A stretch of 64,000 nt of DNA from Actinobaculum suis (GTDB lineage: Bacteria; Actinomycetota; Actinomycetes; Actinomycetales; Actinomycetaceae), in assembly GCF_900102025.1 (NCBI RefSeq), contig NZ_FNAU01000005.1, positions 1 to 64,000 of the forward strand, in the 5' to 3' direction. The position numbers and the translations under genes were made by a program. This document shows positions 50,058 through 56,201 of the stretch, piece after piece (within the stretch, counting starts at the first letter, position 1; each line of letters opens with the position of its first letter). Below the pieces are notes generated by a model. The model did not search any database. It was given only the letters and a program-made list of their open reading frames with translations, and had not been told where the DNA came from.

Positions 50058-52333
50058 TGAGTGAGGAACTGTTTCAGCTGCGCGTTTGGGCACCTTATGC
50101 CCACCGCCAGGTAGAAGTACTCACCGAAGGCAAGCGCTACCCGATGCGCCCGGAAACGAATGACGCTCGCCACAGCGCGAAAACGGCTAACGACCCCGCA
50201 GAAACTGCTAACCACACCGCAGAAACGGCTAACCACAGCACGAAAACTGCTAACCACACCGCGGAAACGTACGAGCCGGGATGGTGGGTGTGCGAAACCG
50301 GTTTTCCGGCGGGCACGCGCTACCAGTTTTCGCTTGATGGCGGAATGCCTTTGCCCGATCCGCGTTCGCGCCGCCAACCGGAAGGCGCACATGGTCCTTC
50401 TGAAATCGTGGATACCGCCCAGTTCGAGTTTTCGGATTTTGCCGGCGTAGATCCTTTGGGCAAAGTGTTCTATGAATTGCATATTGGTACTTTCACGCCG
50501 GAAGGGACTTTCGCGGCCGCCGCGGAAAAACTGCCCTACCTGCGTGATCTGGGTGTAGACGTAGTGGAACTGCTACCGATTCAACCGGTACCGGGCCGGT
50601 GGAATTGGGGGTACGACGGCGTCGACCTGTATGCAGTTACGGAAAACTATGGCGGGCCGGCTGGTTTTGCCGCTTTTGTGGAGGCTGCTCACCAAGCCGG
50701 GCTAGCGGTGTGTTTGGATGTGGTCTACAACCATTTCGGGGCGGATGGGAACTATATAGGCCAGTTCGGCCCGTATTTCACGGAAACCCATCACACACCG
50801 TGGGGCGCGGCCCTGAATTTTGATGGGCCGGAAAGTGGCCCGGTACGGCGTTTCTTTATCGAGAATGCAGTGCAGTGGGCCCGTGATTACCGGGTAGATA
50901 TGTTCCGCCTGGATGCCGTGCACGCGATTATTGACGATTCGCCGCGTCATATTTTGGCGGAACTTTCCGATGCACTCAAAGCTTTTGGGAAGACTGCGGG
51001 CCGCACAATCGGGCTCATTGCCGAATCTGATATTAACGACCCGGCAATGGTGGAGTCTACCGCGCGCGGCGGGTACGGCATGGATATACAGTGGACGGAC
51101 GATATCCACCACGCCCTACATGTTGCCTCCACGGGAGAAACCCAAGGTTATTACGCAGATTTTGGGGAACCGGGTGCGTTGGAGAAAGCTTTGCGGCACG
51201 TTTTTGTGCACGACGGCGTCTACTCCACTTTCCGCAAGAAACTGTGGGGCCAACCGGTGCCCGAAACCACTGATTCGCGCCGATTTTTGATCTATACCGA
51301 AAACCACGATCAAGTGGGCAACCGGGCTACCGGGGATCGGCGCACGGCAACGATTTCGCCCGGTGCAGCGGCCGCCGCAGATGCCGTGGCCGCACTCTCT
51401 CCGTTTTCCTACATGTTGTTCCAGGGCCAAGAATGGGCAGCTTCCTCCCCCTTCCAGTTCTTCACCGACCACGGCCCCGAACTGGCCCCCAAAGTGGTGC
51501 AAGGCCGCATCGAGGAATTCAAAGATTGGGATTGGCAGGCCCTGACGCCCGCAGTTCCTTCCCCGCAGGAGGAATCAACTTTCTATGCTTCCCAGCTCAA
51601 CTGGGAAGAAGCCGAACGCGGCGAGCACGCGAAATATTTGCGGATAACGCGGGAGCTCTTGCGTTTGCGGCGTGAAGTGCCAGATTTCGCGAATGCAAAC
51701 CGGGCTGATTCAGAGATTGTCCGCTTGGGCCGGGCTGGATACTACCGGCGCGGTAATTCGTATATTGTATTCAACTTTGTGGGACCGGCCACGGTTACTT
51801 TGCCGGGCACACTCTGCTTGCCGGCCACGGTTCCTCTGCCCACTACAGATTTCTTAGCCCCTGAGCCTGGCCACGACCTAACAGAAGCGCCAACCCGCGG
51901 CGCGGATGATTCTGCAGGGACCGAATCTGAGAGTATGGAAGCTGAACGTGAGGGGTCCGGGCGCGGGGAATTTCGCCACGCAAACTCTGGAAACCCTGGT
52001 TCTGGGCACGCGGCCTGTGGACGCCCGGGATCCAGCCACGCCGATTCTAATCGCGAAGTGCTTGAGCTAGCTTTGGCTTGGGATAAACCGGAAATTATTC
52101 CTATTCCAACTACGCAGGTAACGCCCGTTACAAATACCGGAATCCAGGGCAAAATGGTTGAAAACGGGCCCGCTCCAAACGCCACGCTCCCCCACCGGCC
52201 GGTTGAAAGCGGCTTAGCGGCCACGGATACGGATATTACGGGCTGGCAAGTGCATTTGTACCGGCCCGGTTTTGCCGTGTTCGTGCCCGCGCGGTCCGGG
52301 AGAAAACCCATGAATCTTGGGCACCCTAGGTAA
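50057..52333 (+). CDS. treZ: maltooligosyl trehalose trehalohydrolase with repeat inserts
   Basis: Releases trehalose from the TreY product. The 758-residue protein has LRVWAPYA, YELHIGTFTPEGTF, DVVYNHFG, VDMFRLDAVHAI (nucleophile), GLIAESDIND (acid) and TENHDQVGNRATG. Two oddities: near residues 35-74 there are five 7-residue repeats of the AETANHT type inside the N-terminal domain, and a disordered insert of roughly 130 residues precedes the final strand WQVHLYRPGFAVFVP. The ATG overlaps the treY stop (TGATG) and follows AAAGG. A second, diverged copy of its 3' end lies at 53243. Confidence 0.93.
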   Translation: MSEELFQLRVWAPYAHRQVEVLTEGKRYPMRPETNDARHSAKTANDPAETANHTAETANHSTKTANHTAETYEPGWWVCETGFPAGTRYQFSLDGGMPLPDPRSRRQPEGAHGPSEIVDTAQFEFSDFAGVDPLGKVFYELHIGTFTPEGTFAAAAEKLPYLRDLGVDVVELLPIQPVPGRWNWGYDGVDLYAVTENYGGPAGFAAFVEAAHQAGLAVCLDVVYNHFGADGNYIGQFGPYFTETHHTPWGAALNFDGPESGPVRRFFIENAVQWARDYRVDMFRLDAVHAIIDDSPRHILAELSDALKAFGKTAGRTIGLIAESDINDPAMVESTARGGYGMDIQWTDDIHHALHVASTGETQGYYADFGEPGALEKALRHVFVHDGVYSTFRKKLWGQPVPETTDSRRFLIYTENHDQVGNRATGDRRTATISPGAAAAADAVAALSPFSYMLFQGQEWAASSPFQFFTDHGPELAPKVVQGRIEEFKDWDWQALTPAVPSPQEESTFYASQLNWEEAERGEHAKYLRITRELLRLRREVPDFANANRADSEIVRLGRAGYYRRGNSYIVFNFVGPATVTLPGTLCLPATVPLPTTDFLAPEPGHDLTEAPTRGADDSAGTESESMEAEREGSGRGEFRHANSGNPGSGHAACGRPGSSHADSNREVLELALAWDKPEIIPIPTTQVTPVTNTGIQGKMVENGPAPNATLPHRPVESGLAATDTDITGWQVHLYRPGFAVFVPARSGRKPMNLGHPR
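50160..50270 (+). repeat. 21-bp in-frame repeats inside treZ
   Basis: Five diverged units of about 21 bp (core GCAGAAACGGCTAACCACAC) encode AKTANDP, AETANHT, AETANHS, TKTANHT, AETYEPG in tandem. Confidence 0.9.
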
Positions 52334-52363: not shown

Positions 52364-52395
52364 GCACGAACCGAGCACCGGTGCTCGGTTCGTGC
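52364..52395. repeat. perfect 32-bp palindrome after treZ
   Basis: GCACGAACCGAGCACC is followed immediately by its exact reverse complement with no loop. There is no T tract; it could be a treZ terminator, a protein-binding site or the left edge of the cassette that follows. Confidence 0.9.
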
Positions 52396-52443: not shown

Positions 52444-52725
52444 CTATTCCCTGATTCCGGCCTTTACCGCTCTCATCGCAAGCTCACCGCGCGTTGCACA
52501 ACCGGTGTGCCTGAGGATATCCGATACATAGGATTTCACTGTCGCTTCTGTGAGCCCAGTTTTCCTCGCAATGTTTTTATTAGACAGTGCTTTAAGCATC
52601 AGACGGAAAACTGGTCGCAAATGGGAGGCAAGGGTCTCCACTGCTGCAATAAAGTCTGCGTATTTTTCGCGGTCTTCTTGAGCATGTGCATAAGATGCAG
52701 TATCGAAAAGAGACTGTGGAAACAA
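52444..52725 (-). CDS. small LuxR-type helix-turn-helix protein or remnant
   Basis: The 93-residue frame contains a LuxR/GerE DNA-binding domain: LKALSNKNIARKTGLTEATV, then VKSYVSDILRHTGCATRGEL, equivalent to the usual LSNKEIA...TVKxHVSxILxKLG pattern. The N-terminal 45 residues are unrecognised and far shorter than a receiver domain, so it may be the end of a truncated response regulator. The only in-frame start is TTG at 52725 with TATAAT 13 bases upstream (plus 52738-52743), so expression is possible. It is divergent from, and slightly overlaps, the peptide gene. Confidence 0.6.
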   Translation of the reverse strand: MFPQSLFDTASYAHAQEDREKYADFIAAVETLASHLRPVFRLMLKALSNKNIARKTGLTEATVKSYVSDILRHTGCATRGELAMRAVKAGIRE

Positions 52726-52842
52726 GCAGCGCTCACTATTATAAAAGTGGTCGGCAAGAACGCTATCAAAGGTGGCCTAGCGGGGCTCGCCGCATCTTTA
52801 GCTGCATCTGCAGCTTGGTGCCTCACGCCGTGGGCCAAGTAA
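52684..52842 (+). CDS. small cationic hydrophobic peptide, bacteriocin-like (unrecognised)
   Basis: 52 codons. The N-terminal third is basic (Lys/Arg), followed by ALTIIKVVGKNAIKGG and an Ala/Gly/Leu-rich helix-like C-terminus with two Trp (AAWCLTPWAK). The GG after IK could be a double-glycine cleavage site, but the leader is not typical. The stop TAA is fused to the next gene's ribosome site (TAAGGAG), which supports real translation. The start is uncertain: ATG 52684 lacks a ribosome site, and ATG 52621 or GTG 52747 in the same frame are alternatives. I know no family for it; antimicrobial function is inference. Confidence 0.45.
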   Translation: MCIRCSIEKRLWKQAALTIIKVVGKNAIKGGLAGLAASLAASAAWCLTPWAK

Positions 52843-52851
52843 GGAGTTATC

Positions 52852-53139
52852 ATGCGTAAAGATTCTGATCGCAAGGCATTTTCCAAACTAGGGCTCTACA
52901 CGTTGCTTCTGCTCTACACGTTGCTTATGTGTGGTTTGTTCTTCTTGTGGCTCTGGGTTAGCTTGGGAGCCAGATTCCAAACCTTGATGGCTGATTACGG
53001 TTCAACGCTTCTCACCTTCTGCGTGGTAATTGTTGCTGTATTTCCGCTCGTGGGGACAGTGACGAGATCGTGGACTAGCGCGCCCGAGGTTAGCGAAGAG
53101 AGACAAAACGTACCTGCAACACTTGCGAAGGCAAGCTAG
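52852..53139 (+). CDS. small two-TM membrane protein
   Basis: 95 residues, not recognised. A basic N-terminus (RKDSDRK) is followed by TM1 (LYTLLLLYTLLMCGLFFLWL), a short loop, TM2 (TLLTFCVVIVAVFPLVGTV) and a polar tail. The ATG has an ideal AAGGAG six bases upstream, and that site overlaps the stop codon of the peptide gene, so the two are coupled. Such a pair would suit a peptide plus immunity or export helper, as an inference only. Confidence 0.7.
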   Translation: MRKDSDRKAFSKLGLYTLLLLYTLLMCGLFFLWLWVSLGARFQTLMADYGSTLLTFCVVIVAVFPLVGTVTRSWTSAPEVSEERQNVPATLAKAS

Positions 53140-53193
53140 CTTCGCCCAAGTGCGGCTTCAGTAGCTTGAAATTACCGCCACGAAAAACTTACT

Positions 53194-53229
53194 GTGGCCG
53201 GTCCTGCACAACTGCTCAGGGCCGGCCAC
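53194..53229 (+). terminator. hairpin at right end of peptide cassette
   Basis: GTGGCCGGTCCTG and CAGGGCCGGCCAC pair over 13 positions with one T-G wobble around a 10-base loop; TATATTTAT follows. It ends the peptide/two-TM transcript. Confidence 0.7.
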
Positions 53230-53320
53230 GTATATTTATCGCTGGCAAGTGCATTTGTACCGGCCTGGTTTTGCGATGTTCGTGCCCCAGCAAGCCGGTA
53301 ACTTAGCAACTGTTATCTAA
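53222..53320 (+). pseudogene. second, diverged copy of the treZ 3' end
   Basis: 53241-53265 is identical to treZ 52242-52266 (25 bases), and the frame reads on as WQVHLYRPGFAMFVPQQAGN to a stop at 53318-53320. Compared with treZ, 14 of the first 15 residues agree (Met for Val), then the ends differ completely. Weaker similarity (GGCCACG-TA-TATT) extends left. It has no start and is a displaced gene end. Confidence 0.85.
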
Positions 53321-55742: not shown

Positions 55743-56201
55743 TTAGTCGTCATCGTCGTCATCATTGTCGTCGTCATTGTCATCATCGTCGTCGTCATCG
55801 TCGTAGTTGCCGACGTAGGCGGGTGGGGCTTTCGGGGCGCGTTGCGGTTGTGGGACGGCGGCGGGAGCGGGTGAGCCAGCTGGTGCGGGGGCAATCCCTG
55901 CTGTCCCGTTCGGCGGCGCGGTGTCAGTTTCTGAGTTGTTTTGCGGGCCGCCGGGCGTGCCGTTTTTGGGGCCGTTTGGGGCGGAGCTGGTGGTTTCTTG
56001 GTTTGCGGTTTCGGTGCTGGCAGGGTCGCTTTCTGGGGTTGCGGTGCTAGTTTTTGGATCTGTTTGGTTACTTTCGACTACTATTGCTGGTCCGCCGTCG
56101 AGTTCGAAAGAGTCGTTTTTCCCAAGCATTAGCGCGGCTGCTCCGGTGCCTAGACCAGCGATAATTAGCACGACTATCAAAATTGTGAGTTTTCTTCGCA
56201 T
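55743..56201 (-). CDS. membrane-anchored protein with poly-aspartate tail
   Basis: 152 residues. A TM or signal anchor at 5-25 (LTILIVVLIIAGLGTGAAALML) is followed by a Pro/Thr/Asn/Ser-rich disordered region and a C-terminal run of about 20 residues made almost only of Asp with two Asn. The tail is presumably outside the cell and could bind divalent or cationic molecules such as Ca2+ or cationic peptides. It is downstream of HK2 on the same strand and convergent with the response regulator. No enzymatic motif. Confidence 0.75.
   Translation of the reverse strand: MRRKLTILIVVLIIAGLGTGAAALMLGKNDSFELDGGPAIVVESNQTDPKTSTATPESDPASTETANQETTSSAPNGPKNGTPGGPQNNSETDTAPPNGTAGIAPAPAGSPAPAAVPQPQRAPKAPPAYVGNYDDDDDDDDNDDDNDDDDDD

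What the first reader, a model, noticed from the sequence alone, without database searches (positions are those of the whole stretch)
52444..53229. Candidate bacteriocin-like cassette: LuxR-type protein, 52-residue peptide, two-TM protein
The peptide is basic at the N-terminus and Ala/Gly/Leu-rich with two Trp at the end, with a GG at positions 30-31. Its stop codon is fused to the perfect ribosome site of a 95-residue two-TM protein. A divergent LuxR-type DNA-binding protein sits beside it, and the unit ends in a terminator. Size and arrangement recall peptide plus immunity or export units, yet I recognise no family.
Basis: inference. Interest (0 to 1): 0.7.

Follow-up and report, generated by a model that had tools for sequence, protein, structure and literature searches.

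The report
Beheaded bacteriocin locus, immunity gene kept
The "52-residue peptide" and the "LuxR protein" are the two broken ends left when one deletion of about 2.4 kb removed the middle of an EntV-like antimicrobial-protein locus, leaving intact only the small membrane protein that probably protected the cell from its own toxin.

Summary
The open reading frames are real, but the unit is not a working cassette. The peptide's last 46 residues match the C-terminus of a 197-aa Sec-exported bacteriocin precursor in Actinotignum schaalii; related precursors match EntV/enterocin O16 along their whole length. The 93-aa "LuxR protein" matches the last 85 residues of a 220-aa NarL-type response regulator. 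In A. schaalii these genes lie back to back: regulator, histidine kinase and a small secreted peptide on one strand; precursor and a 78-aa two-TM protein on the other. In the window, homology to both genes ends at one point (52701|52702), so a single deletion, 2,416 bp in A. schaalii coordinates, removed both 5' ends, the kinase, the signal peptide gene and the divergent promoter region. Only the two-TM gene is complete and has a good ribosome site. A. sanguinis and a third Actinotignum-type genome also lost the toxin gene, in different ways, and kept the two-TM gene, so orphan immunity is the best reading. The lost control module belongs to a candidate family of Cys-x3-Pro-x4-Cys secreted peptides encoded just before HK-RR pairs across Actinomycetaceae, which I did not find described. 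The immunity and signalling roles are inferred.

The parts
52444..52701 (-). Remnant of a NarL/LuxR-type response regulator: last 85 codons (HTH domain) plus stop; receiver domain missing
   Evidence: 76% identical over residues 8-93 to full-length regulators of the same family, frames of about 220-254 aa; homology starts at T9 of the 93-aa frame
52701..52702 (.). Deletion junction joining the inside of the regulator gene to the inside of the bacteriocin precursor gene
   Evidence: Equivalent to regulator T137 and precursor I152 of A. schaalii; the DNA between them is 2,416 bp there
52702..52842 (+). Remnant of an EntV-like bacteriocin precursor: last 46 codons (equivalent of EntV helices 6-7 and second Cys) plus stop
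   Evidence: 71% identity to the A. schaalii precursor; genome search with the Glutamicibacter precursor finds only this place, E 6e-14
52684..52842 (+).
52444..52725 (-).
52841..52846 (+). Ribosome-binding site AAGGAG, overlapping the precursor stop codon
   Evidence: sequence
52852..53139 (+). Intact two-TM protein, 95 aa; probable immunity protein
   Evidence: 45-47% identical to 78-aa proteins beside the intact or deleted precursor in A. schaalii, A. sanguinis and G052; shared FxTLMADYGS
53190..53232 (+). GC-rich hairpin at the end of the unit, possible weak terminator
   Evidence: -28.6 kcal/mol, z -5.9
52364..52395 (.). 32-bp perfect palindrome between treZ and the regulator remnant, possible bidirectional terminator
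   Evidence: z about -6.8
52212..52288 (+). Left copy of an imperfect direct repeat: 3' end of treZ
   Evidence: 87% over 60 bp with the right copy
53214..53287 (+). Right copy of the direct repeat; part of it reads as a second treZ C-terminus (57% identical to treZ residues 721-750)

Best explanation
This is the relic of a peptide-regulated, EntV-type bacteriocin locus. The ancestral order was regulator <- kinase <- small secreted peptide | operator/promoter | precursor -> two-TM protein. One deletion from inside the regulator to inside the precursor removed both 5' ends and everything between (shown by comparison). Neither fragment can do its old job: the peptide has lost its signal peptide, propeptide and the first of two conserved Cys, and the regulator has lost its receiver domain (shown). 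The two-TM protein stayed intact with its ribosome site (shown) and most likely acts as an orphan immunity protein in the membrane, protecting the cell from the bacteriocin of relatives (inferred from position and from retention in three separate toxin losses).
For: Intact A. schaalii locus with the same gene orientations. Precursor alignment and full-length profile matches: A. schaalii E 2e-12 and Glutamicibacter E 2e-18 to EntV_fam, 8e-7 to the EntV crystal structure 7roa. Regulator homology stops at residue 8-10 of the window frame in every top hit, and the precursor homology starts on the next base. No other copy of the precursor or the small peptide, and no closer HK, in the genome; the two HKs present are 34-35% identical paralogues. 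The operator-like palindrome of relatives is absent from the window even with 2 mismatches. A. sanguinis has an internal precursor deletion and G052 has no precursor; both keep the two-TM gene. The regulator remnant has changed residues that are fixed or nearly fixed in intact relatives (LP to LA, LAIT to LAMR), a weak sign of relaxed constraint.
Against: No intact version of this locus is held for the same species, so the deletion is inferred from relatives with 68-76% (regulator) and 71% (precursor) identity. Both remnants are free of stops, so the deletion is recent or the remnants have some use. Immunity function of the two-TM family is not proven; its C-terminus is longer here (95 against 78 aa). 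Its native promoter is gone and no replacement was identified.
Confidence: 0.87

Rival explanations
1. The 52-mer is a functional leaderless or GG-leader bacteriocin, with the two-TM protein as its immunity or export partner.
For: Open frame, hydrophobic C-terminus, adjacent two-TM gene. In EntV the last helix alone has antifungal though not antibacterial activity (PMC9562342).
Against: The full-length homologues are 180-200 aa Sec precursors. Residues 1-5 are antisense regulator DNA. No ribosome site, no transporter gene nearby, first conserved Cys missing; in EntV the disulfide is required for antifungal activity (PMC6606811).
Confidence: 0.04
2. The deletion made two new working products: a receiver-less, always-on HTH regulator and a cytoplasmic peptide.
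For: Both frames open without stops; solo HTH regulators such as GerE exist (own knowledge).
Against: No ribosome site at the TTG start, loss of the divergent operator, substitutions at conserved HTH-domain positions.
Confidence: 0.06
3. Assembly or sequencing artefact joining two separate loci.
For: Draft genome of 38 contigs, 95.5% complete.
Against: Junction lies inside a 142-kb contig. The two joined genes are neighbours in exactly this orientation in relatives. The missing parts are nowhere else in the assembly.
Confidence: 0.03

Closest known systems
EntV / enterocin O16 / enterococcin V583 (E. faecalis ef1097; PDB 7roa; NCBIfam NF058576)
   Same: Sec precursor with propeptide and C-terminal domain with two Cys; whole-length profile match of the intact relatives; in E. 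faecalis also under peptide-pheromone two-component control (Fsr; PMC5454873)
   Different: Relatives score below the equivalog cutoff. Here the regulator is a NarL-type RR with a HisKA_3-like HK and a Cys-x3-Pro-x4-Cys peptide, genetically linked and divergent, not the Fsr/LytTR system 800 kb away. In the window only the last 46 residues remain.
Corynicin JK (Corynebacterium jeikeium ypkK; Swe 2007, cited in PMC10683109 and PMC5454873)
   Same: Actinobacterial member of the same bacteriocin family (from literature)
   Different: Its sequence was not compared here; gene neighbourhood unknown to me
Orphan immunity genes of bacteriocin and T6SS systems
   Same: Immunity-type gene kept while the toxin gene is lost
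   Different: Here the membrane protein family has no tested immunity function, and the toxin was lost by three different deletions in related genomes
Glutamicibacter plasmid genes AOZ07_RS17975-70 and AARI_RS18315-00310
   Same: Precursor 61% identical over the retained 46 residues, followed by a small membrane protein
   Different: Plasmid-borne, mobilisable, precursor intact, downstream protein 121 aa with more TM segments

Membership tests
EntV/enterococcin V583/corynicin JK bacteriocins | Full-length precursor matching the EntV profile | tested here: not met
   Window peptide matches only profile positions 121-161 of 162; intact relatives match 2-161
EntV/enterococcin V583/corynicin JK bacteriocins | Sec signal peptide and propeptide | tested here: not met
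   Absent in the window; present in A. schaalii, Glutamicibacter and B. pumilus precursors
EntV/enterococcin V583/corynicin JK bacteriocins | Two conserved Cys forming the essential disulfide | tested here: not met
   C191 equivalent kept (C46 of the peptide); C130 equivalent lost; need for the bond from PMC6606811
EntV/enterococcin V583/corynicin JK bacteriocins | Extracellular proteolytic maturation and antimicrobial activity | not testable with these tools
   needs experiment
Class II GG-leader bacteriocin | Double-glycine leader at N-terminus, cleaved by a dedicated ABC transporter | tested here: not met
   GG lies inside the conserved C-terminal domain of longer precursors; flanking genes are treY/treZ-type and a two-component system, no transporter in 49-57 kb
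NarL/FixJ response regulator | Receiver domain plus LuxR HTH | tested here: not met
   Only GerE HTH in the window; A. schaalii homologue has Response_reg 5e-29 plus GerE
Orphan immunity gene | Intact homologue of a toxin-linked small membrane gene without a working toxin gene | tested here: met
Orphan immunity gene | Protects against the cognate bacteriocin | not testable with these tools
   needs experiment

The most novel reading that the evidence does not exclude
The lost control module belongs to an undescribed, family-wide peptide signalling system of Actinomycetaceae: a Sec-exported peptide ending in a 10-residue Cys-x3-Pro-x4-Cys loop of variable sequence, read by the adjacent histidine kinase and NarL-type regulator, which switch on Sec-exported bacteriocin-like proteins. 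Under this arms race the toxin gene is repeatedly deleted while the immunity gene is kept, as in this window.
Probability: 0.6. Interest if true: 0.75.

Novelty: new variant of a known kind. Interest (0 to 1): 0.5.

Why it matters
It turns an unrecognised small-ORF cassette into an explained deletion product and names the intact system it came from. The comparison exposes a candidate immunity family for EntV-type bacteriocins (the self-protection mechanism in E. faecalis is described as open in PMC5454873) and a candidate peptide signal family for Actinomycetaceae, both testable with synthetic peptides and simple expression experiments.

Tried and rejected
Pfam gives nothing for the peptide or the two-TM protein; Pfam and NCBIfam give nothing convincing for the two small signal-type peptides tested. 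AlphaFold2 of the A. schaalii proprotein without an alignment gave pLDDT 51, so no fold search was run. tblastn of the full A. schaalii precursor against plasmids found nothing at E 0.01, although the 52-mer had found plasmid homologues. G001, the only congener held, has treZ but neither the locus nor the same downstream genes, so the empty site cannot be shown. GG-leader and leaderless readings were considered and rejected. An assembly artefact was considered unlikely. Literature searches found no description of the Cys-x3-Pro-x4-Cys peptides or of Actinotignum bacteriocins of this type in the held library.

Full report
What was checked. The three frames, the GG pair, the fused stop/ribosome site and the end hairpin are all present as described. 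Only the two-TM gene has a Shine-Dalgarno sequence (AAGGAG, a few bases before ATG); the peptide ATG (52684) and the LuxR TTG (52725) have none. The two frames overlap by 42 bases.

The peptide. Against plasmids the 52-mer matched the C-termini of 186-aa proteins of two Glutamicibacter plasmids (61% over residues 7-52) and, more weakly, of 183-aa proteins of Bacillus pumilus plasmids. These have a signal sequence, a propeptide, a first Cys, then the matched domain, and each is followed by a small membrane-protein gene. In the window's own family (213 genomes) a complete precursor of 197 aa stands in G054 = Actinotignum schaalii AS1054 (named through). The window peptide shares 71% with its C-terminus. 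NCBIfam places the full precursors along the whole EntV profile (2e-12 and 2e-18, below the equivalog cutoff of 130 bits), and their profile matches the EntV crystal structure 7roa at 8e-7. The alignment shows that the window keeps the equivalents of the last two EntV helices and the last Cys and lacks all before them.

The regulator. The 93-aa LuxR frame matched regulators in 69 of 213 genomes. In the closest hits the match begins at residue 8-10 of the window frame while the hit continues into a full frame of about 220-254 aa; the A. schaalii homologue has a receiver domain. Residue 9 of the window frame lies at 52699-52701; the first homologous precursor codon (Ile) is 52702-52704. The two homologies therefore abut. 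In A. schaalii the equivalent points, regulator T137 and precursor I152, are 2,416 bp apart, and between them lie the rest of the regulator, a membrane histidine kinase, a 71-aa secreted peptide gene and the divergent promoter region. The simplest account is one deletion. The missing parts are not elsewhere in the assembly; the two other HK-RR pairs of the genome are distant paralogues on C32 and C33. The operator-like sequence CCGACATNCGTCGG of the relatives occurs in loci from A. schaalii, A. sanguinis, G052, G205, G206 and G075, is seen in slightly altered form in G190, and is absent from the whole window with up to 2 mismatches.

The two-TM gene. It is 45-47% identical to 78-aa proteins of A. 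schaalii, A. sanguinis and G052, with the core FxTLMADYGS invariant. In A. sanguinis the precursor has an internal deletion (its first codons run into the last 23, out of frame) while signal peptide gene, kinase, promoter region and two-TM gene stay; in G052 the precursor is gone and the two-TM gene follows the promoter region directly. With the window this makes three different toxin losses with the membrane gene kept, against one intact locus. Elsewhere in the family precursors are broken in G064, G132 and G212 and fused to an antiporter frame in G178. Small TM proteins, mostly with two segments, follow the precursors in G131, G132, G017, G064, B. pumilus and Glutamicibacter and a different secreted protein in G190. 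This is why I read it as immunity; no protective activity has been tested.

The setting. The unit is flanked by an 87% identical 60-bp direct repeat of the treZ 3' end (52229-52288 and 53228-53287). The right copy reads as a second treZ C-terminus. This suggests that the locus was inserted at the end of treZ; in A. schaalii it sits beside a patatin-like gene instead, and in this genome the patatin-like gene (C32) has another HK-RR module beside it. The one congener held lacks the locus but is not syntenic, so the insertion itself cannot be shown.

The lost control module. A profile of six small secreted peptides found new members at E 4e-12 to 5e-7 directly beside independently found regulators in G190, G191, G205 and G075. 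Scanning the loci fetched for the regulator alone, 16 of 39 with an HK carry a frame ending in C-x3-P-x4-C within 250 bases of the HK start: 16 of 191 segments there against 11 of 5,568 elsewhere, Fisher p 1e-17 (loci chosen by the peptide hits were left out). The residues inside the loop vary between systems. This is the pattern of a peptide signal and its receptor; it is a prediction, and part of the loci are close relatives, so the p value overstates independence.

Judgement. As a window feature it is a deletion relic with a probable orphan immunity gene (interest about 0.5). The intact systems behind it deserve more attention than the relic.

Noticed in passing
L048:7205-7420, L049:7055-7378, L051, L054, L055, L063, L082-L085, L087, L088, L096, L100, L104, L106, L109-L111, L116-L120: Small secreted peptides ending in Cys-x3-Pro-x4-Cys with variable loop residues, encoded just upstream of HisKA_3-type kinases and NarL-type regulators across Actinomycetaceae; candidate peptide pheromone family.
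   Followed up: partly
L048:7106-7119, L049:7356-7369, L050:2090-2103, L052:10386-10399, L083:3665-3678, L084:3717-3730: Conserved palindrome CCGACATNCGTCGG with direct repeats CGTCGGTAT near the start of the peptide gene (between peptide gene and bacteriocin gene where that is present): candidate regulator binding site.
   Followed up: partly
window 52212-52288 and 53214-53287: Imperfect direct repeat of the treZ 3' end flanking the relic; suggests insertion of the locus at the end of treZ.
   Followed up: partly
L051:11272-12257 (G190): A different 240-aa secreted protein plus 88-aa two-TM gene, divergent from the same type of peptide-HK-RR module and with the same kind of operator: another bacteriocin-like cargo.
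   Followed up: no
L036:1492-2883 (G178): EntV-like C-terminal domain fused in frame to the end of an Na+/H+ antiporter-type protein; deletion product or true fusion.
   Followed up: no
L034 (G064), L035 (G212), L042 (G132): Further EntV-like precursors interrupted by stops; in G064 and G132 a small TM gene next to them is intact.
   Followed up: no
L062:3370-7996 (own genome C32) and L061:456-2828 (own genome C33): Two further HK-RR modules of the same class in the window's genome, one beside a patatin-like gene as in Actinotignum, with small secreted or TM proteins nearby.
   Followed up: no
window 55743-56201 (-): Small membrane-anchored protein with an Asp-rich C-terminal tail next to a two-component system.
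   Followed up: no
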